Shown piece after piece: positions 11,979-62,487 of a stretch of 64,000 nt of DNA; positions within the stretch are counted from its first letter, which is position 1, and each line of letters starts with the position of its first letter. Made by a program: the position numbers and the translations under genes. The notes below the pieces were generated by a model. It did not search any database. It was not told the origin of the DNA and was given only the letters and a program-made list of their open reading frames with translations. The stretch comes from Halobacteriales archaeon QS_8_69_73 (GTDB lineage: Archaea > Halobacteriota > Halobacteria > Halobacteriales > Haloarculaceae), in contig PXRZ01000009.1 in assembly GCA_003022945.1 (NCBI GenBank), forward strand, positions 6,710 to 70,709, given 5' to 3'.

Positions 11979-12973
11979 ATGGACGACCGTGACGATGACC
12001 GCGACACCGACGGCGATGTGCCGACGCTGGTCGAGCCGGCGTGGCTCGAGCCGCGACTGGCGGAGCCGGACCTGCAGGTGCTGGACTGTACCGTCTACCT
12101 CCGGACGGACGTCGAGACGGGCGAGTACCGCACCGAGTCGGGGCGCGACGACTGGGCCGACGGCCACATCCCGGGCAGCGCCTTCGCCGACCTCGTCGAA
12201 GACCTCTCGGAGACCGACGACCCGGACTATCCGTTCCAGCTGCCGACGCCGGCGGCGTTCGCCGCGGCGGTCGGCGAGCTGGGCGTCGGCGACGACACCC
12301 GCGTGGTGGTGTACGACGCCGTCGACCGCCGGAATAACAACGAGTGGGCGGCCCGGCTGTGGTGGATGTTCCGGGTCTTCGGCAACGACCGCGTCGGCGT
12401 GCTCGACGGCGGCTGGCCGCGATGGACCGCCGAGGACCGCCCCGTCTCGACGACGGCTTCGCCGCCGGAGTCGACGACGTTCACCCCCGACGAGCGTCCG
12501 GAGCTGGTCGCCGACGCGGCCGACGTCGAGGCGCGGATGGACGACGCCGACGCCTGTCTCGTCGACGCTCTCCGGCCGGCCGACCACGCCGCCGAGCGGA
12601 TTCCGGGCTCGGCGAACGTCCCCGCGGTCGGCGACGAGGCCGTCATCGATGACGACGGCACATACCGGCCGGTCGACGACCTGCGAGCACGATTCGACGC
12701 GGTCGGTGCGCTCGACGCGGACTCGGTCGTCACCTACTGCGGCGGCGGCATCGCCGCCAGCAGCGCCGCTCTGGCGCTGTACCGCGCCGGCGTCACCGAC
12801 GCCGCCGTCTACAGGCGGAACAGGCCGAGTGCCACGGGGTCGCACGGAAATCGGAGATTTCCATGATGACGAGACGCCTTCAGCGTCTCGAACCACTTGA
12901 CCCCGAGGCGGTTCACGACGGCTCGCTGTCGGAGTGGACCGCCGGGGGCCACCCGGTCGTCGGCGACGACTGA
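11979..12973 (+). pseudogene. tssA: Thiosulfate sulfurtransferase (two-domain rhodanese), interrupted near its 3' end
   Basis: Residues 1-278 form two rhodanese domains; the active-site cysteine is Cys254 in VTYCGGGIAASSAAL. After Tyr278 (codon 12810-12812) the frame enters foreign sequence and ends a few codons later. The original tail (DGSLSEWTAGGHPVVGDD, stop) resumes at 12917-12973. Removing 12813-12916 rejoins GTC TAC to GAC GGC and gives a normal 296-aa protein. The interrupted product ends with about 17 foreign residues but keeps the catalytic loop, so it could still work. Confidence 0.85.
12813..12916. mobile_element. 104-bp palindrome-bearing insertion in tssA (PATE-like)
   Basis: The boundaries are exact because deletion of these 104 nt restores tssA. 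No target duplication is present, as expected for IS200/IS605-type single-strand transposition. Inside are two palindromes: stem GGAAATC with loop GGA (12846-12862), and stem CGAGACGC with a 5-nt loop (12870-12890), separated by ATGATGA. The right end reads CTTGACCCCGAGGCGGTTCAC. Palindrome-associated transposable elements (PATEs), described in Haloquadratum, are the closest known class; I cannot name a parent IS. Confidence 0.65.
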
Positions 12974-14148: not shown

Positions 14149-14816
14149 ACTACCTCGCCCTACGTCGCTCACCCGCAAGGGTTCGCTCCTCGAGGACGGG
14201 GCGTTCTCACAGTAGTTTCGGCCCTGCCCCCGTGCATGGACGAGGCGCGACCTTCGTTGCAGTCGCGTCATCCCGGCCGAACAGCGCACGTAGAGTTCCT
14301 ACGCCGCCTTGGACTGATTCAGACGGTCTGCGACACTCCTGCTTTAATTGTCGGTAGCCACGATGTGGCCCCGACATCACGGGACGGTTTACTCGCGCCC
14401 CCGCCTCGGCGAGACGTGCGCCCGCCGAGGCTTGCATAGACCAATATGCGTGGCTCCGTCAAAAAAGGTATGGCCTCGACCCCGTCCCTCACTACGTAGA
14501 CCAGGAGTAGAGTCTCCATCCGCGTCGGCTTCTGCGCGCGGGCTTTGCCCGCTCGCATGGTCCGCGGAACTCCGTTCCGCGCTATCCTCCCCACCCGACT
14601 CGCTCGCTTTCGCTCGCTCATTGAGGGTAGGGCCTCTGCCTCGAATCAGGTAATACTGCCGGCCCCGACGTTTTCGATCCGCAGTGCCGCGAAACGGCTC
14701 CTGTCGAACGGCTGCCGTCGAACGCTTCGAATCAACTTTCACGTAATCGTAGCCGGCAGCACGAGCGGCCGCGGAGGCGCCGTCGGCTGGTCGGGCCCGC
14801 CGAGAAGGGGCCGCCG
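14149..14816. other. Gene-poor stretch, probably decayed mobile DNA, with two mini-hairpins
   Basis: No frame here looks like a real gene. Two perfect palindromes with 3-nt loops occur: GCGGGC/loop TTT (14538-14552) and GCGGAAC/loop TCC (14564-14580). The same two-hairpin block, with changed bases, lies in gatE near 58917-58960. A low-complexity CGCTCGCTTTCGCTCGC run follows. The mixed frames and repeats suggest an old insertion, but I cannot name a parent element. Confidence 0.4.
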
Positions 14817-16285: not shown

Positions 16286-17376
16286 GTCACCTCGCTCCAC
16301 TTCGCCCGGAGGTTCTCGTTGCGGTAGACGACCGACCCGCTGCGGAACTCGACGTCGACGCCGGCCCCGTAGATGACCGCCTTCGCGTTCGGGTCGTCGC
16401 CGCTCGTCGGCGCGTAGTACGGCGTCCGATCGGCCCTGGTGTCGACGGTGAAGTTGTACGTGCCCGTCACGCGGTCAGCGGGAGGGATCACGACTGTGGG
16501 GGGACCGGCCGGGTTCGGAACTGATACTCTGCCCGTCTTCGTGTTCCGGTAGCTGATGCTGTGCGACGTCCCGGTGACGTCGTCGGTGTAGAACGACAGG
16601 TCCGAGCACTCCTCGCCGTCGAAGGTGCCCTCGACGAGGTCGAGGCTCACGTTCTCGCCGGTGCTCGTGCAGTAGTTGCCGGCGACGAGGTTGCTCGGGT
16701 CGCTGACACCGCCGGGATCGAAGTCAAATCCACCGGGCGGCTTGACCACGACGTACGTCGCGTCCGACACCGGCGAGTCGTCCTGGAAGAGATACACTAC
16801 CCACTTCCGTCCGATCTCGTCTTCGATCACGACGTTGAACGTCTCGCCGAAGATGGTGTCGAGGGCGAGCGCGGCCGGCGCAACCAACAGCGACGTCCGG
16901 TCGACGGTCAGCTCGAACTCGCCGGCCCGGGTCGTGTCGTCGACCAGCGTCCACTCGTCCGTACCGGCGACGCTCCCGCCGGCGGTGAAGTTGCGGCTCG
17001 CGTTCGTCTGCTGAATGTGAGTCCCCTCGACGGTCTCGTTCGGCCGGTATTCCACGAATCGCCCGGTGCGCTGGTACTGTCGTTCGAGGCTGTCGGACCA
17101 CACCGCGAGGTCGTCGTTGTAGCCGTTTTCCACGGCGCTGAAGTTGTCCTCGACGACGGCGGCGTTCGACCGGTCGATGAGCTCCCGGAGGTCGTTGACC
17201 GCGAGCTGCTGGGTCTCGGCGACCCGCTCGGCCTCGCCGCTCGTCTCCCGCGTCGAGAGGTTCTCCGCGTAGATGGCGTCGTTGACGACCAGCGCTAGCC
17301 CGACGAACGACGTCGCCACGACCAGCGACCCGATGAGCAGCATCTGGCCGCGCTCGCGGCCGGTCACATCCGCCAC
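16282..17376 (-). CDS. Pilus cluster membrane-anchored protein, 364 aa (DUF7261-like)
   Basis: After the start (MADVTGRERGQMLLIGSLVV) comes one hydrophobic helix, then an extended extracellular part with several N-glycosylation sequons (NAS, NFT, NVS) and a Cys pair (NYCTSTGE, GEECSD). It overlaps both neighbours by 4-13 nt. Its place among the pilin-like genes suggests a surface component of the pilus system. Confidence 0.7.
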   Translation of the reverse strand: MADVTGRERGQMLLIGSLVVATSFVGLALVVNDAIYAENLSTRETSGEAERVAETQQLAVNDLRELIDRSNAAVVEDNFSAVENGYNDDLAVWSDSLERQYQRTGRFVEYRPNETVEGTHIQQTNASRNFTAGGSVAGTDEWTLVDDTTRAGEFELTVDRTSLLVAPAALALDTIFGETFNVVIEDEIGRKWVVYLFQDDSPVSDATYVVVKPPGGFDFDPGGVSDPSNLVAGNYCTSTGENVSLDLVEGTFDGEECSDLSFYTDDVTGTSHSISYRNTKTGRVSVPNPAGPPTVVIPPADRVTGTYNFTVDTRADRTPYYAPTSGDDPNAKAVIYGAGVDVEFRSGSVVYRNENLRAKWSEVT

Positions 17377-27104: not shown

Positions 27105-28805
27105 TCAGTCGTCGTTCGGGGCGGCTTCCTCCGGCACCCGGCCCTCGACCAGCGACTCGTCGGTGTGCCGCTCGCGGATGTCCTTCTTCGAGAACTTCCC
27201 GGTCGCCGTCTTGGGGATCTCCTCGATGAACTCGACGTTGTCCGGCAGCCACCACTCCGGGTAGTCCTCGCCGAGCATCTCCGTGATCTCCGCCTCGAGC
27301 GTCGACTCGTCGGCGCCGTCGGCGGGGACGACGAACGCCACCGGTCGTTCCTGCCACCGTTCGTGGGGGACGCCGACGACCGCCGCCTCCGCGACGTCGT
27401 CGTGGGCCATGACCGCGTTCTCGAGCTCGACGGAGGAGATCCACTCTCCGCCGGACTTGATGACGTCCTTCGCGCGGTCGACGAGCGTGATGTACCCTTC
27501 CTCGTCGACGGTGACGACGTCGCCCGTCTTCAGCCACCTGCCGGAAGACGTCCCGTCTTCCGACTCCCCGCTCGCTCCGCTCGTGGGGACGTCCTCGAAG
27601 TCCTCCTCGTTGGCCTCCGGGCGCTTGAAGTACTCCGTCGTCACCCAGGGACCGCGAACCCACAGCTCGCCGAAGGCCTCGCCGTCCCACGGCACCTCCT
27701 GGCCGTTTTCGTCGATGACTTTCATCTCCAGGCCGGGGACGAGCATCCCTTGTTTGGCGCGGTGTTCGAGTTGGGTGCCGTAGTCGGCGTCCTGAAGGCT
27801 GGACTTCAGATGCGACACCGAGCCGATGGGCGACATCTCGGTCATGCCCCATGCGTGCAGCAGCTCGACGCCGCGGTCGTCGAACCACCGGATCATCGAC
27901 TCCGGGGCGGCCGACCCGCCGACGACGACGGTATCGAGCGCCGAGAGGTCGAGATCGTTGTCCTCGGCGTACTCCATCAGCCCGAGCCACACCGTCGGGA
28001 CGCCGGCGGTGATGGTGACGCCTTCCTCTTCGATGAGCGCGGCGACGTCCTCGGGGTCCGGCGACGGTCCCGGGTAGACGTGCTTGGCGCCGCCGGCCGT
28101 CGCGGTGAAGGGCATCCCCCAGGCGTTGACGTGGAACATCGGCACCACGGGCATCACGACGTCGTCGTCGGCCATCGGAATACCCTGCGGCGTCAGCGTC
28201 GCCATCGTGTGGCTCCACAGCATCTCGTGGGTGTACTCGATGCCCTTCGGGTTGCCCGTCGTCCCCGAGGTGTAGCACATGCCGGCGGGTCGCTCCTCGT
28301 CGAGAACCGGCCAGTCGTACGCCGTGTCGTGACCCCCGAGGAACGACTCGTACGGCGTCGCCTCGACGGCGTCGGTCTCCGACGACGACATCACCACGAG
28401 GTCGACGCCCTCGAACTCCGGGGCATCGGCGGCCGCCGACGCCAACTTCGGCGCCAGCGACTCGTCGACGAAGATCAGCTCGTCGTCGGCGTTGTCGACG
28501 ATGTACCGGATGTGCTCGTCGGGCAGCAGCGGGTTGATCGTGTGCAGTTGGGCGCCGATGGTCGGCACCGCGAAGTACGTCTCGAAGTGCCGATGGTGGT
28601 TCCAGCAGAACGTCCCGACGCGGTCGCCGGCCTCGATGCCGTGGGCCTCGAGGGCGTTGGCCAGCTGTGCCGTCCGGTCGTCGTACTCGTCGTAGGTGTA
28701 CCGCTCGATGCCCTCGTGGGTCCGGGAGACGATCTCCGTGTCGGGGTAGAGGTTGGCGGCGCGCCACAGGAAGGGTCGAAGGGTCTGATCGGTTGCTCCA
28801 GGCAT
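27105..28805 (-). CDS. AMP-forming acyl-CoA synthetase with a hairpin-derived insert
   Basis: The ATG at 28805 starts [16 protein letters not shown]; a GTG nine bases upstream is less likely. This medium/long-chain type ligase activates a fatty acid to acyl-AMP and then acyl-CoA. Motifs: P-loop [39 protein letters not shown] and the C-terminal catalytic lysine region KTATGKFSK. Just before the hinge motif WLKTGD the protein has about 18 extra residues ([18 protein letters not shown]), encoded by two palindromic segments at 27544-27597. The frame is kept. The insert is next to the domain-rotation hinge. Confidence 0.9.
27543..27561. repeat. Mini-hairpin inside the acyl-CoA synthetase gene
   Basis: The arms GGAAGAC and GTCTTCC enclose a 5-nt loop (GTCCC), closed by a C-G pair. 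It is followed by a GCTCGCTCCGCTCG low-complexity palindrome to about 27590. Together they encode the extra residues of the synthetase. Confidence 0.6.
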
Positions 28806-40504: not shown

Positions 40505-41732
40505 ATGGCGAATCGAACGGTCACGCGCACCCACGTCGCCTCCGTCCGTAATCAGCGACAGGTGCGTGACGACCTCGATTCGCTCTCGTGAACGCCTCGA
40601 AACTCTGGAACATCGCCCGGTGGACTGCCGAGCGCATCTGGAGTGAAACGGGCTACATCCCCGGCCACGCCGAACTCTCCTCGTACCTGAAATCCAACGA
40701 ACGCTACGCGGACCTCAACGCACAGTCCAGTTCGTTCGAAACGGCGGAGCCGTTTCGTGATGCCAAAAATCTTCGATTTTTGAGCACACATACCACAAGC
40801 ACGGCGACCAGCATCCGCACTCGACGGTCACGTTCAAACAGGACGGCTTCAAACACGACCCCGAGAACGGACGTGTCCGGCTCTCGAAAGGCCGCAACCT
40901 CAAAGACGGGTGGAGTGACTTCATCCTCTGCGAGTACACTGCTGACCCCGACGCGGACATCGAGAACGTCCAGCAGGTCCAGGCGGTGTATGACCGCGGC
41001 GAGTGGCGACTGCACTTCGTCTGTCGCCACGAAATCGACCCGAGGCCACCGGGTGACAACGTGGCCGGTATCGACCTCGGTATCTCGAACGTCGCCGCCG
41101 TGTCGTTCGGTGACGAGGGCGTTCTGTACCCCGGCGGTGCGCTCAAAGAGGACGAATACTGGTTCCACAAGAAGCGGGCCGAATGCAACGACTCGGCGTC
41201 CGCCGAGGCCGACCGTCTCGACCGGAAGCGCAGCGAGCGGCGATCGCACTTTCTTCACGCGCTGTCGAAGGACATCGTTGAGCGGTGCGCCGAGCGCGGC
41301 GTCGGCACCATCGTCGTGGGCGACCTCTCGGGCATCCGCGACGGCGAGGACTGGGGCGACAGCGGCAACCTCGACCTGCACGGGTGGGCGTTCGACCGCT
41401 TCACGACGTTGCTCGAATACAAAGCCAACGAACGTGGCATCAACGTGGAGCAGGTGGACGAACGCGGTACGTCCAAGTCCTGTTCGGTCTGTAGTACCGA
41501 GGACGGAAGCCAGCGGGTCGAACGCGGGTTGTACGTCTGCGAGTCGTGTGAGACGGTTGCTAACGCGGACATTAACGGCGCGGAGAATATCCGCGAGAAG
41601 GTACTCCCGAGTCTCGCCCCTGACGGGGGAGATAGGGATAACGGCTGGATGGCACAGCCAGCGGTCCGCCTGTTCGACAAGTCAACGGGCCGAGTACGCC
41701 CACAAGAACAGGTTGTAGACCGCAAACCATAA
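40505..41732 (+). pseudogene. tnpB: TnpB (RNA-guided nuclease / transposon-associated), broken
   Basis: Frame 1 begins MANRTVTRTHVASVRNQRQV and stops at 40591; frame 2 continues ASKLWNIARWTAERIWSETG to about 40730. Then two mini-hairpins (40737-40782) replace roughly 27 codons. The rest is open to 41732: VAGIDLGISNVAAVSFGDEG (first RuvC Asp), IVVGDLSGIRDGEDWG (where many TnpB have Glu before the Asp), the zinc ribbon SCSVCSTEDG...VCESC, and NADINGAENI (third RuvC Asp). At least two breaks make it inactive. Confidence 0.85.
40737..40782. repeat. Paired mini-hairpins inside tnpB
   Basis: Hairpin one: stem CGAAACGGC, loop GGA (40737-40757). Spacer TGATGC. Hairpin two: stem CAAAAATC, loop TTC (40764-40782). 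Both are perfect and closed by C-G at the loop. They occupy a place where the tnpB coding sequence is interrupted. Confidence 0.8.
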
Positions 41733-41827
41733 TACCCCAACCGCGGTCGGGAAACCGCGCCGTCGCCGGGCTGCGCCCGGCTGCCTGAGGGAGCTTCGCT
41801 CCCTCTCCGTTCACGGCGCGGAGGATG

Positions 41828-44224: not shown

Positions 44225-45202
44225 ATGATGACGAGAGCGGTCGAGGTCACGGAGTTCGGCGACGCCCGGACGATGACCGTCCGCGAGGTCGAGCCGCCGG
44301 AGCCGGAAGCGGGCGAGGTCCGCATCGAGGTGCGGGCCGCGGGGATCAACTTCGCCGACATCATGCAGCGCCGCGGCCACTACCACGGCGGCCCGGAGCC
44401 GCCGTACCGCCCGGGGATGGAGGCCGCGGGCATCATCGACGCCGTCGGCGAGGGCGTCAACCGAGAGACCGGCGAGCCGGTCGTCTCGCTGGTCGACGGC
44501 GGCGGCTACGCCGGGTACACCGTCGCGGACGCCCGCGGCCTGCTCGAGATCCCGGGCGAGATGGGCTTCGAGGCGGCCGCCGGCTTCCCCGTCCAGTGGC
44601 TCACCGCCCACAACTGCCTCTTCGAGTGGGGCGACGTCGAGGCCGGCGAGACGGTGCTCGTCCACGCGGCGGCGGGCGGCGTCGGTTCGGCGGTGGTCCA
44701 GCTGGCCGACGAGGCCGGCGCCGAGGTGATCGGCACCGCCTCGACCGACGAGAAGCTCGCGACGGCGAGCGACTTGGGGATGGACCACGGGATCCGCTAC
44801 ACCGAGACGGACTTCGTCGACCGCGTCGACGAGGTAACCGACGGCGAGGGCGTCGACCTCGTGCTGGACGGGATCGGCGGCGAGACGACCGACCGGAGCC
44901 TCGACGCGCTCCGGTCGTTCGGCCGGATGGTGTCGTTCGGCGCCGCCGCCGGCGAGCCCGGCCGGCCGAACACCGCCGATCTACTCTTCGGCAACAAGAC
45001 GGTCATCGGCTATCACCTCGGCCGGGCGCTCCGGCGGCAACCGATGCGCGTGATGGGCGCCGTGCCCGAACTGACGCAGCTGCTCGGCGACGTCACCCTC
45101 GAGGTACAGGTCGGCCACACCTTCGACCTCGCGGACGCCGCCGAGGCCCACCGGTTCATCGAGGATCGCAAATCCAGCGGCAAGGTCGTCCTGGTGCCAT
45201 GA
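44225..45202 (+). CDS. qor: Quinone oxidoreductase (zeta-crystallin-like MDR protein)
   Basis: This 325-aa NADPH-dependent medium-chain reductase has an N-terminal GroES-like domain (AAGINFADIMQRRGHYHGG), the YRPGMEAAGIIDAVG segment, the Rossmann motif HAAAGGVGSAVVQLA and the C-terminal end HRFIEDRKSSGKVVLVP. Zinc ligands are absent, as in quinone oxidoreductases. Two ATGs (44225, 44228) are adjacent. The stop TGA (45200-45202) is also the first three bases of an element end (TGACATCC). Confidence 0.88.
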   Translation: MMTRAVEVTEFGDARTMTVREVEPPEPEAGEVRIEVRAAGINFADIMQRRGHYHGGPEPPYRPGMEAAGIIDAVGEGVNRETGEPVVSLVDGGGYAGYTVADARGLLEIPGEMGFEAAAGFPVQWLTAHNCLFEWGDVEAGETVLVHAAAGGVGSAVVQLADEAGAEVIGTASTDEKLATASDLGMDHGIRYTETDFVDRVDEVTDGEGVDLVLDGIGGETTDRSLDALRSFGRMVSFGAAAGEPGRPNTADLLFGNKTVIGYHLGRALRRQPMRVMGAVPELTQLLGDVTLEVQVGHTFDLADAAEAHRFIEDRKSSGKVVLVP

Positions 45203-45515
45203 CATCCTCCCCGGCGTGGACGGAGAGGGAGCGAAGCTCCCTCAAGCAGTCGGGCGTCGCCCGACGACGCCGGGGTTTCCCCGCACTCGGGGTCGGGCCG
45301 GTCCCGACACCGACGGAGGCAAGATTCCACCCGAGGGGTGTACTCTGGTTCGTGCTCGGTACGTGAGCCCCGCGAGGGGTGTGGCGGGTTCGGCGTCCCG
45401 ACAGGGACGCGGTATCTCCTTGCACAGCGTCCGAGACTGCATCGGACGACCGCCCGCGGTTGAAGCACGGACGGACACGGGCCGTGCCATCGGCCTGCCT
45501 GCCCTTTCTGTGGTT

Positions 45516-45559
45516 CGAGAATCAACGATTCTCGTCATCACGAAAATCTCTGATTTTCG
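45516..45559. repeat. Paired mini-hairpins
   Basis: Stem CGAGAATC with loop AAC (45516-45534), spacer TCATCA, stem CGAAAATC with loop TCT (45541-45559). Both stems are perfect 8-bp repeats closed by C-G. The flanks GGTT and AACGACC extend the outer palindrome. Confidence 0.85.
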
Positions 45560-45789
45560 AACGACCACGGTGGACAGGCTCGCACGCCGACGGGGTTGGA
45601 TTGGTCAGGCCGTCACCCTATCCCGTGTTGCAGGGGCAGGGGTACTGGAAGCACCGTGTGGTGCGTCTCGGCGGGAAGGACCCCAGTGTTTCCGGATTGA
45701 TTTCGGCGATTGAGTTATCCTTGCATACGACCCCAAGCGGGCTAAATCCTGCGCTTGCGCCACCAAGCGCACGCGATTCACGTCCGTCC

Positions 45790-45949
45790 CCAGAACGCGA
45801 AGCGTTCTGGTGTCTCGGAAATCGGAGATTTCCGATGAGTCCGCAGGAACTCCGTTCCTGCGAGATGCGAACGAGACGCGAAGCGTCTCGTCAACGCCGT
45901 AAACAGCGTGGCGTCGGAGACGCCACGGGCAGACGGCGCGAAGCGCCGT
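45790..45949. repeat. Array of six mini-hairpins
   Basis: Six perfect palindromes, all with 3-nt loops: CCAGAACGC/GAA (45790-45810), GGAAATC/GGA (45817-45833), CAGGAAC/TCC (45844-45860), CGAGACGC/GAA (45872-45890), GTGGCGTC/GGA (45908-45926), ACGGCGC/GAA (45933-45949). Every loop is closed by C on the left and G on the right. Two of the stems are identical to those in the tssA insertion. Spacers are 6-17 nt. Confidence 0.9.
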
Positions 45950-45982
45950 CGACGGCGGGACTCTCTCGCTGTCAAAAGGTAG

Positions 45983-58131: not shown

Positions 58132-60001
58132 TTAAGCGCGCTTCCCGATAGCCTCCCGCAGCAGCTCGGAGACGACCTCGCCGTCGGCCTTCCCGCGGAG
58201 CTCGCCCATGCACTCGCCCATCAGCCCCGAGAAGGCGCCCATCCCCTCGCGTTCGACCTGGTCGGCGTTGCGCTCGACGACGCCCTCGACGACCTTGCGG
58301 ACGGCCTCGCGGTCGGCGCCGCCGACGCCGGCGGCCTCCATCGCCGCCTCGGCGTCCAGCGAGGGGTCGTCTGCCAGCGCCGACAGCACCGGCCCGATCC
58401 CCTCGTTCGGCAGGTCGCCGTCGGCGACGAGCTCCAGGACGGACAGCAGGTGGTCGTCGGCGAGCCGCCCGACGGGGACGTCGTCCCGGCGGAGCTCGGT
58501 CAGCGTCCCTTCGAGGGTGTCGGCGGCGGTCGTCGGGTCGACGCCCCGCGCGACGGCGGCCTCGAAGGTCGGCATGTGCTCGCCGTAGGCGACCTGTTCG
58601 GCCAGCCCGGCGTCGAGGCCGTGTTCGGCCCGGTACCGGTCGATCTTCTCGGTCAGGAGCTCCGGCGGCTCGATTGCCGAGGGGTCCGGCTCGACGGGCG
58701 GGACGTCCGTCTCGGGGTACATCCGGGCGGCGCCGGGCAGCGGCCGCAGGTACCGCGAGGTGCCGTCCTCGTCGGCACCGCGGGTCTCCTCGGGAACGCC
58801 CGCGATTGCGGTCTCGGCGCGGTCGACGACGGCGTCGATCGCGCGCTCGGCGACGTCGGCGTCGGCGGCCACCAAAGCGACGGCGTCTCCTGCTCGCGGC
58901 TCATCGCCGTCTTCTCGCGGGCTCTGCCCGCTCGAACGGTCCGCGGAGCTTTGCTCCGCGCTACTCGCACCGTTCGAGGCGCTCTGCGCCTCGCGCGCGC
59001 CGACCGCCGTCCGGAGCGCCGCGACCTCCTCGCTCGTGACGCCGTAGGCCGGCAGCTCGTCGGTGTGGAAGATCCCGCCGGCGCCCTGGCGCGTGGCGTG
59101 GTCCGACAGCTCCGTGCCGAGCCGGCGGTCGGGCTGTATCTCCGAAGATCTCGGTGACGTCGACGGGGTCGCCGACGGCGGCGTCGCGGGCTCGCAGCTC
59201 CTCGGCTATCTCCAGGAGCTCGACCTGACGCTTCACCTCGTTTTCGACGATGTCGTCGATGTCGTCGAGGCTCTGGACGCCCTTCAGCTCGACGCGGGCG
59301 CCGGCCTCGATGGAGACGTTGACGTCCTGGCGGATGGTGCCGAGCCCGCGCTTCACCCGGCCGGTCGACCGCAGCAGCATGCCGATGCGCTCGGCGGCCT
59401 GCTTGGCCTGTGCGGGCGTTCGGATGTCGGGTTCCGTTCCGATCTCGACCAGCGGCACCCCGAGGCGGTCGAGGCCGTAAGTGACGCCGTCCGCCCGGTC
59501 GTCGATCCGGGCGGCGGATTCTTCCTCCAGCAGGAGGTCGGCGATACCGACGGGGCCGGCGTCGGTCTCGATCTCGCCGTCGGTCGCCAAGAGTGCCGAC
59601 CGCTGGAAGCCGGAGGTGTTGGAGCCGTCGACGACGATCTTCCGCATCACCTGTGCCCGGTCGACGATCGTACAGTCCAGCAGGGCGGCGATCTCCAGGG
59701 CGACTTCGAGGGCCGCCCCGTCGAGGCGGTGGGGCGGCTCGTCGTCCTCCTCGACGAGGCAGGTGGAATCGAAGGCGAGGTACTCGAACTCGCGGTCGAC
59801 GCGGGACTCCTCGAGGGCGGCCTCGTCGAGCTCGCCGAGCTCGGACTTCGTCGGGTGGAGATACCGGGTGAACGACCGGACGGAGTCGGCGGGATCGCGG
59901 CGCTCCGTCGGGCAGTTACAGAACAGCTTCGTCGCCGTATCGAGCTGCTGGTGGATCTCCAGCCCGGCGACGAGCCCCAGTTCCTCGTAGTCGTGGCTCA
60001 T
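58132..60001 (-). pseudogene. gatE: Glu-tRNA(Gln) amidotransferase subunit E, frame broken, with hairpin insert
   Basis: GatE, with GatD, converts Glu-tRNA(Gln) to Gln-tRNA(Gln) in archaea. From ATG 60001 the frame is clear to VDVTEIFG; then it breaks near 59140 and resumes in another frame at EIQPDRRLGTELSDHATRQG. Relatives have about 30 more residues here. In the second part an in-frame insert (about 30 Ser/Gly/Gln-rich residues, 58890-58993) made of three mini-hairpins separates AVGARE from ALVAADADVAERA. The C-terminal Yqey-like domain is intact. This is normally an essential single-copy gene. Confidence 0.85.
58917..58993. repeat. Three mini-hairpins inside gatE
   Basis: GCGGGC/loop TCT (58917-58931), CGCGGAGC/loop TTT (58942-58960), CGAGGCGC/loop TCT (58975-58993). 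The first two, including the spacer GCCCGCTCG-A-GGTCCGCGGA, match the block at 14538-14581, with compensating changes in the second stem. Confidence 0.85.
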
Positions 60002-60561: not shown

Positions 60562-61872
60562 TCAGTCCTCGCCGAGGATGTCCCGCTCGGTCATCGCCGC
60601 CGGGTCGAGCACCTCGTCGGCCTCGGCCTCGGTGAGGTGACCTTCCTCGACGGCGACCTCGCGGACGGAGCGGTCCTCCGCCAACGCCCGCTTTGCGACC
60701 GTCGAGGCCGCATCGTAACCGATGGCGGGGTTCAGCGCCGTCGCCAGCGCCATCGATTGCTCGACCCGCTCGCGACAGTAAGCCTCGTCGGCCTCCAGGG
60801 CCGCGACGAACCGCTCGGCAAAGGTCCCGGCGCCGTTGGCGATCAGCCGCGCGCTCTGGAGGAAATTGTACGCGACGACCGGCTTGTAGAGGTTCAACTC
60901 GAGCTCGCCGCGGGCGGCGCCGGCCGACACCGTCGCGTCGTTGCCGATCACCTGCTTGTGGAGCTGGTTGACCGACTCGGCGACGACCGGATTGACCTTC
61001 CCCGGCATGATCGACGATCCGGGCTGGTTCTCCGGCTGTTCGATCTCGCCGAGGCCGTTCCGCGGCCCCGACGCCAGTAGCCGGAGATCGTTGGCGATCT
61101 TGTTCATCGACCCCGCGACGGTCCGCAGGGCGCCGTGGGCCTCGCTCATCGCGTCGTGGGCCGCCTGCGCCTCGAAGTGGTCGTCGGCCTCGCGGAACTC
61201 CAGGCCGGTCTCCCCAGAGATGGACTCCGCCGCCAGCGCCGGGAATTCGGGGTGGGTGTTGAGCCCCGTCCCCGTCGCCGTCCCGCCCAGTGCCAGCTCC
61301 CCGAGGTGCTCGCGGGTCGCGGCGACCCGTTTGATGCCTTTCTCCACCTGGGTGCGGTAGCCGCCGAACTCCTGGCCCAGACGGACCGGCGTGGCGTCCT
61401 GCAGGTGCGTCCGGCCGGTCTTGACGATACCGTCGAACACCACGTCGTTGGACGATTGGCCGTAGTTGACGTCGTCGTTGGGGTGGATCTCCCGGGAGCC
61501 GAGCTCGCCGCCGACGAGCTCCGTCGCCCGGTTGGCGATGACCTCGTTCGCGTTCATGTTCGAGGAGGTGCCGGAGCCGGTCTGAAACACGTCGACCGGG
61601 AACTGGTCGTCGTGGTGGCCGGCGATGACCTCGTCGGCGGCCTCGATTATCGCTTGGCCCGTCTCCTCCGGGAGGAGCCCGAGCTCGTGGTTCGCCTCCG
61701 CGGCGGCCTTCTTGACGACCCCGAGCGCGCGGACGAACCGTCGCTGGAAGGTCAGCCCCGAGACGGGGAAGTTCTCGACGGCCCGTTGCGTCTGGGCGCC
61801 CCAGTAGGCGTCCGCCGGGACGCGCATCTCGCCGAGACTGTCCTCCTCGACGCGGTAGTCGTCATCGGACAT
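60562..61872 (-). CDS. fumC: Class II fumarate hydratase with an apparent internal deletion
   Basis: The 436-aa enzyme interconverts fumarate and malate. Motifs: TGSGTSSNMNANEVIANRA, NDDVNYGQSSND, KTGRTHLQDATPVRLGQEF, GGTATGTGLN and the signature GSSIMPGKVNPV. After SSND (residue 143) the family normally reads about 30 more residues (PTAMHIA and a helix) before the FDDIVKTGRTHL segment; here V-FDGIVKTG follows at once (junction near 61436-61443). The deletion is in frame but removes part of the first active-site region. A fragment of the gene's start is repeated at 62488-62592. Confidence 0.85.
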   Translation of the reverse strand: MSDDDYRVEEDSLGEMRVPADAYWGAQTQRAVENFPVSGLTFQRRFVRALGVVKKAAAEANHELGLLPEETGQAIIEAADEVIAGHHDDQFPVDVFQTGSGTSSNMNANEVIANRATELVGGELGSREIHPNDDVNYGQSSNDVVFDGIVKTGRTHLQDATPVRLGQEFGGYRTQVEKGIKRVAATREHLGELALGGTATGTGLNTHPEFPALAAESISGETGLEFREADDHFEAQAAHDAMSEAHGALRTVAGSMNKIANDLRLLASGPRNGLGEIEQPENQPGSSIMPGKVNPVVAESVNQLHKQVIGNDATVSAGAARGELELNLYKPVVAYNFLQSARLIANGAGTFAERFVAALEADEAYCRERVEQSMALATALNPAIGYDAASTVAKRALAEDRSVREVAVEEGHLTEAEADEVLDPAAMTERDILGED

Positions 61873-62342: not shown

Positions 62343-62487
62343 CGTCGCTCGACGAGTACGGCGAAGCGTCGCTTCGTCGAACGGGTCGAATCGGAGATTC
62401 GCCTGCTCGACGCGACACGGCTGCGTCGAACATCGCCGAGCAGAGCTCGGCAAGCCCGACGAAGCGACGCTTCGTCGAACACCGAAT
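62343..62487. repeat. Mini-hairpin array after the gene at 61998
   Basis: Perfect palindromes with 3-nt loops: CGAAGC/GTC (62362-62376), CGAATC/GGA (62387-62401), CCGAGC/AGA (62436-62450), ACGAAGC/GAC (62459-62475); another stem, CGACGC, has a longer loop (62409-62429). All 3-nt loops are closed by C-G. No gene is visible in the segment. Confidence 0.85.

What the first reader, a model, noticed from the sequence alone, without database searches (positions are those of the whole stretch)
45790..45949. A family of perfect mini-hairpins with 3-nt loops always closed by C-G
I found more than twenty perfect palindromes with stems of 6-9 bp and a 3-nt loop (a few with 5 nt) at unrelated sites: 12846-12890, 14538-14580, 27543-27561, 40737-40782, 41762-41812, 45225-45280, 45516-45559, 45790-45949, 58917-58993 and 62362-62475. 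In every case the base before the loop is C and the base after it is G. About half of the loops have the GNA form on one strand (GAA, GGA, GCA); d(GCGAAGC) is a known exceptionally stable DNA mini-hairpin. The same stems (for example GGAAATC with loop GGA) recur in different loci. This looks like a class of tiny palindromes that inserts or is regenerated, not chance.
Basis: partly seen in the sequence, partly recalled or inferred. Interest (0 to 1): 0.85.

Follow-up and report, generated by a model that had tools for sequence, protein, structure and literature searches.

The report
Mobile twin-hairpin DNA units in haloarchaea
The tiny perfect hairpins are parts of roughly 50-65-base mobile DNA units, each made of two hairpins, that are scattered through salt-loving archaea and often nest inside one another; their stems change freely but always stay paired, which points to movement by an unknown machinery that reads the fold rather than the sequence.

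Summary
In 459 kb of this genome, perfect hairpins with stems of 9 bp or more and a 3-nt loop number 50 against about 12 expected; loops of 4-8 nt show no comparable excess, and 44 of 50 are closed by C-G. One listed case (27542) is closed by G-C and looks like chance. Most of the others belong to small mobile units made of two hairpins. The clearest, the V-unit (TCGTTCG-hp-CGTGATGACG-hp-CGAACCA), occurs in 170 of 292 haloarchaeal genomes. It inserts precisely at CGNNG|C without target duplication; 106 of 136 copies have an empty-site match. Of its hairpins 89% are perfect, although the stems are hypervariable (98.5% of cells paired, 111 double changes). The two hairpins of a unit are never alike (0 identical, 20 expected). 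The focal region 45790-45949 lies in the left-end palindrome of a 780-bp IS605-type element; it holds a second unit (W) with a third (X) nested inside. The closest known kinds are the Haloquadratum SMR-A/PATE repeats and bacterial REP dimers. The mobilising enzyme is unknown, and Y1 transposase presence does not track V-unit presence. This is a new variant of a known kind, not chance.

The parts
45199..45978 (-). IS605-type, transposase-free (PATE-like) element, 780 bp; right end at 45199-45283, left end at about 45903-45978
   Evidence: Exact insertion: clean empty site in sister genome G011 (C3:56006/56007); 67 partial matches to this region in own genome, including short ~180-bp versions
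45216..45271 (-). Right-end hairpins GAGGGAGC-gaa-GCTCCCTC and GTCGGGC-gtc-GCCCGAC of the element
   Evidence: the same hairpins occur in the ~180-bp versions
45511..45564 (-). V-unit (TCGTTCG-AAAATC..-TGATGA-AGAATC..-CGAACCA), 54 nt, inserted at G|C inside the element
   Evidence: coordinates; empty site in own-genome copies of the host element (97.5% over 80 nt); copy L004 has the same hp2 but another hp1
45785..45894 (-). W-unit (TTGACGA-hp-TCGTTCGCA(cac)CAGAA-hp-TTCTGGGGACG), split by the X-unit, in the left-end palindrome of the element
   Evidence: same site and junctions as in IS605 left ends of G086 beside intact tnpA (L287, L288)
45813..45865 (.). X-unit, 53 nt, TCTCGG-hp-CCGATGAGTCCGCAGG-hp-CCTGCGAGA, nested in the W-unit linker
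   Evidence: W-units without it read TTCTGGTG|TGCGAACGA
45907..45950 (-). Left-end hairpins CGTGGCGTC-gga-GACGCCACG and GACGGCGC-gaa-GCGCCGTC of the element
12813..12914 (+). 102-bp mobile element containing a decayed V-unit (hairpins 12846-12862 and 12870-12890)
   Evidence: Absent from G011 at the same site; a 103-bp relative is inserted elsewhere in G011 (C22) and absent here
14538..14581 (.). Two-hairpin array GCGGGC-ttt / CGCGGAAC-tcc with linker tcgcatggtc
40737..40782 (.). Two-hairpin unit inside a frame-broken tnpB (catalytic C-terminal part 40986-41732)
41765..41805 (+). Right-end hairpins of the IS605-type element; the first lies at the 3' end of a sot RNA (TnpB-overlapping RNA) match
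   Evidence: Rfam RF02656 sot0042 at 41599-41774
58917..58993 (-). Three-hairpin array in the linker of gatE, read in frame
   Evidence: Array absent in the congeners inspected; G011 has further units nested inside two of the hairpins
62362..62477 (.). Four-hairpin array; longer version in G011
27542..27562 (.). G-C-closed hairpin in coding sequence, not a member of the family
   Evidence: lies in a 6959-nt block 96% identical to G011

Best explanation
The hairpins are the structural parts of very small, protein-free mobile units of haloarchaea. Each unit is a pair of perfect triloop hairpins held by short conserved ends and a linker (V: TCGTTCG-hp-CGTGATGACG-hp-CGAACCA; W and X have other ends and linkers). 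Shown: V-units sit at exact, duplication-free junctions, mostly 3' of CGNNG at a G|C step, often inside other mobile elements and sometimes inside the tip of another hairpin, so units nest. Shown: stem sequence is nearly free, pairing is kept, and the two hairpins of a unit avoid resembling each other; old copies decay in one arm without repair. Inferred: a unit moves as folded single-stranded DNA recognised by shape (C-G-closed triloop, two independent stems) plus its conserved ends, as in IS200/IS605 elements and REP dimers. Purifying selection on copies that still move keeps stems perfect. Whole stems or tips are exchanged between units by short-tract gene conversion, which gives the shared set of stems in new combinations.
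For: Triloop- and C-G-specific excess. Empty sites: V-unit 106/136 with exact junctions, e.g. 65/65 nt at gatE, 62/62, 79/80. Target CGNNG|C in 27/44 independent junctions against 16.7% background, p=4e-11. The framework pattern leaves the stems free, yet 257/288 stems are perfect, 228 of 257 loops are 3 nt and 230 are C-G closed. Covariation: 98.5% of cells paired, 111 double-changed cells against 37.6 shuffled, slid controls 30-53% paired. Dissimilar partners: 0 identical against 20.1, shared run >=7 in 3 against 41.7 +/- 5.2; no single-hairpin deletion product. Occurrence: 170/292 haloarchaeal genomes, reversed-pattern control 0. Hairpin exchange in place: window and L004 copies share flanks and hp2 but have different perfect hp1. 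Decay without repair. No G-U strand bias among mismatches: GT 15, AC 10. Nesting in gatE and of X in W.
Against: No mobilising gene was found. Y1 transposase presence is not associated with V-units (p=0.20), and one genome with 17 V-units shows no Y1 match at E<=1e-10. Only 16/136 V-unit sites now show a >=6-bp flanking stem (shuffled mean 5.8, maximum 11), so insertion into hairpins is a minority pattern for V. The single-stranded intermediate and selection on the fold are inferred, not shown. The collection scan pattern fixed the outer G and C; in the unbiased set they hold anyway.
Confidence: 0.68

Rival explanations
1. Mutational origin: DNA polymerase template switching between the two arms keeps short inverted repeats perfect and flips the loop, with no selection on the fold and no special mobility.
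For: Template switching homogenises arms and inverts spacers (PMC8604942). Loops occur in both orientations in same-oriented units (GAA 43, TTC 46); 6 of 24 loop-only differences at matched sites are exact inversions.
Against: It does not explain conserved linkers, exact empty sites or the target motif, nor the avoidance of like hairpins within a unit. Orthologous old arrays keep one-arm mutations.
Confidence: 0.12
2. Structured RNA: the arrays are parts of non-coding RNAs such as TnpB guide RNAs, and selection acts on the RNA fold.
For: A sot RNA (TnpB-overlapping RNA) family match covers one of the right-end hairpins; many units sit in IS605-type elements.
Against: V-units also sit in other contexts and within gatE; mismatches show no G-U strand preference (GT 15, AC 10); Rfam shows no other match to the arrays in the window; both arms are Watson-Crick perfect in 89% of hairpins.
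Confidence: 0.1
3. Passive passengers of IS200/IS605 elements: hairpins are the recognition palindromes of those elements and spread only with them, moved in trans by Y1 transposase.
For: W-units sit 133-145 nt upstream of intact tnpA in G034, G086 (two copies) and G087; several window sites are IS605-type ends.
Against: V-units have their own empty sites within several different hosts and in a cellular gene; no association with Y1.
Confidence: 0.1

Closest known systems
SMR-A small mobile repeats of Haloquadratum walsbyi (PMC3119063)
   Same: Tiny, no gene, no target duplication, insert into near-terminal palindromes of PATEs and IS605-type transposons; mobilisation unknown.
   Different: SMR-A are about 110 bp with >95% identity within a type and are described without hairpin pairs; here units are about 50-65 nt, stems are hypervariable, and the family spans haloarchaea.
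PATEs and IS605-type transposons of haloarchaea (PMC3119063)
   Same: The 780-bp element at 45199-45978 has no target duplication, subterminal palindromes and no transposase.
   Different: PATEs are the hosts; the two-hairpin units sit inside them.
Bacterial REP dimers / REPINs (PMC3733652, PMC3116915)
   Same: Two hairpins as one mobile unit with conserved flanking tags; heterodimers with different stems are reported, and CGTC repeats end in CCA.
   Different: Stems in a REP family are largely fixed; here they vary freely within one framework, loops are 3 nt with C-G closure, and no partner transposase is linked.
Rickettsia palindromic elements (from own knowledge, not read here)
   Same: Palindromic units inserted in frame in protein genes, as in gatE.
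   Different: No sequence or taxonomic link tested.

Membership tests
SMR-A (Haloquadratum) | No gene, no target duplication | tested here: met
   Exact empty sites, 54-68-nt units
SMR-A (Haloquadratum) | Inserts into near-terminal palindromes of PATE/IS605 elements | tested here: met
   Met for the W-unit; only some V-units do so
SMR-A (Haloquadratum) | About 110 bp, >95% identity within a type | tested here: not met
   About 50-65 nt, stems hypervariable
SMR-A (Haloquadratum) | Sequence match to HqIRS42/43/55 | not testable with these tools
   Sequences are in supplementary tables that could not be opened
REP/REPIN | Hairpin dimer with conserved tag moving as one unit | tested here: met
REP/REPIN | GTAG or CGTC tag beside the stem and a RAYT (Y1) partner | tested here: not met
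   Tag is GTTCG; no association with Y1
IS200/IS605 (PATE) for 45199-45978 | No target duplication, subterminal palindromes, no transposase gene | tested here: met
TnpB reRNA / sot RNA | Rfam sot0042 match overlapping the tnpB 3' end | tested here: met
   Only at 41599-41774, not at the other arrays

The most novel reading that the evidence does not exclude
The units are mobilised by an unknown structure-specific recombinase of haloarchaea that recognises two independent C-G-closed triloop hairpins with almost any stem sequence and joins DNA at C-GNN-G|C, so that each insertion brings new hairpins that can be targets in turn. This would be a self-nesting class of mobile DNA whose information is its fold rather than its sequence.
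Probability: 0.25. Interest if true: 0.85.

Novelty: new variant of a known kind. Interest (0 to 1): 0.64.

Why it matters
It gives an explicit, testable anatomy (ends, linker, target, fold rule) to repeats whose movement was called enigmatic in 2011, shows that they span most sampled haloarchaeal genera, and provides hundreds of natural variants in which sequence changes but fold does not. It also shows hairpin units inserted in frame in gatE, and an unexpected rule that the two stems of a unit differ.

Tried and rejected
Y1 transposase as mobiliser: no association. Viral contigs: no exact V-unit. Single-hairpin deletion products as the reason for unlike partners: none found. RNA wobble bias: not seen. 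Fast correction in place: rejected at one orthologous array. Many apparent G011-specific insertions were rejected as evidence because they are coding segments missing from the G000 assembly. The idea that V-units always insert into a standing hairpin was downgraded. A literature search on d(GCGAAGC)-type hairpins failed on its search term and was not repeated.

Full report
Observation. The hairpins exist where stated. In 459 kb of this genome, perfect hairpins with stems >=9 bp number 50 for 3-nt loops against about 12 from an order-3 Markov model; loops of 4-8 nt give 11-14 each. At stem >=9, 44 of 50 close with C-G; at stem 6, where counts equal expectation, only half do. The sister genome G011 gives 91 in 400 kb, 82 C-G closed. 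One listed case, 27542-27562, closes with G-C inside well-conserved coding sequence and is best seen as chance.

Focal region. It has IS605-type ends, no transposase gene found, and many relatives in the genome. Inside it are three smaller two-hairpin units. A V-unit lies at 45511-45564; own-genome copies of the host lack it with an exact junction. A W-unit lies at 45785-45894 in the left-end palindrome, the same site and junctions as W-units in G086 IS605 left ends beside intact tnpA. An X-unit of 53 nt (45813-45865) splits the W-unit linker. Thus most of the perfect palindromes at 45790-45949 are units nested in units, plus two hairpins of the element itself.

The V-unit. Its framework is TCGTTCG-hp-CGTGATGACG-hp-CGAACCA. 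An exact pattern that leaves the stems unspecified finds it in 170 of 292 haloarchaeal genomes and 60 of 76 genera; the reversed pattern finds nothing. Of 136 distinct sites, 106 have a match to the joined flanks elsewhere in the 2.07 Mb held, often letter for letter across the junction, with no duplication or loss. The site is CGNNG|C: in 44 independent junction clusters, C at -5 and G at -4 each occur in 34, both in 27 (background 16.7%). The scan pattern fixed the flanking G and C, but the unbiased set shows them too.

Fold without sequence. In 144 V-units, 257 of 288 hairpins are perfect, 228 of these loops are 3 nt and 230 close with C-G, although the pattern did not ask for it. In 36 equal-length units 98.5% of cells pair, with 111 double changes; slid controls pair 30-53%. 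hp1 and hp2 draw on the same stems in either order, yet never match: 0 identical against 20.1 expected in 213 units, and a shared run of 7 or more in 3 against 41.7 +/- 5.2; among 109 unique combinations 2 against 16.4 +/- 3.5. Deletion between like hairpins would leave single-hairpin units; none was found. The constraint therefore looks like one on folding, with no G-U bias that would point to RNA.

How stems change. The window V-unit and its paralogue L004 in the same genome share flanks (88 and 97%) and an identical hp2, but hp1 is AAAATC-aga-GATTTT in one and AAAGACGC-ctc-GCGTCTTT in the other, both perfect. Whole tips are thus replaced while the rest stays; W shows the same with ATC/GAT against CGC/GCG. 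Short-tract gene conversion between units is the simplest source (inference). Old orthologous arrays keep one-arm mutations, so there is no fast repair in place.

A cellular gene. In gatE the array at 58917-58993 is absent from the congeners inspected. The sister species has the same array with a V-unit and another two-hairpin unit inserted at or beside two hairpin loops, the first exactly at C-AAA-G|C. Both versions read through in the gatE frame as a hydrophilic linker; the frame break in the window's gatE comes from a separate 83-nt deletion that may be an assembly error.

Mechanism and limits. The best reading is transposition of a folded single strand recognised by shape and short ends, like IS200/IS605 elements and REP dimers. 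The enzyme is not identified: presence of Y1 transposase does not track V-unit presence (p=0.20; one genome with 17 V-units shows no Y1 match at E<=1e-10). Only 16 of 136 V-unit sites show a clear flanking stem, so nesting in hairpins is frequent for W and demonstrated for V, but it is not the rule for V.

Known kinds. SMR-A repeats of Haloquadratum share lack of genes, lack of target duplication and preference for PATE/IS605 palindromes, and their movement was called enigmatic (PMC3119063). Size and within-type identity differ, and their sequences could not be compared. REP dimers share the two-hairpin plan, including unlike pairs (PMC3733652), but not the tag, the free stems or the transposase partner.

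Noticed in passing
window 19186, 21890, 29529, 43532, 60366, 61442 and many sites in L034-L036: Compared with its sister genome, this assembly lacks dozens of 53-140-nt pieces inside conserved coding genes, mostly without repeats at the junction; probably an assembly artefact.
   Followed up: partly
window 59143 (gatE): An 83-nt deletion shifts the gatE frame upstream of the hairpin array; probably one of the same artefacts.
   Followed up: partly
L035:9020-9384: Ten triloop hairpins in 365 bp, in a repeat with many related copies in the sister genome G011.
   Followed up: no
L031, L035, L044, L046: A single hairpin CGGCAGAGC-nnn-GCTCTGCCG flanked by GCGAGC-type repeats recurs at five sites.
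   Followed up: no
window 16408-17233: An 826-nt segment absent from the sister genome, flanked by an 11-nt direct repeat TCGCCGCTCGT.
   Followed up: no
L095 (G011:C3) 61046-61107: V-unit inserted in frame in gatE of the sister species, encoding part of a serine-rich linker.
   Followed up: yes
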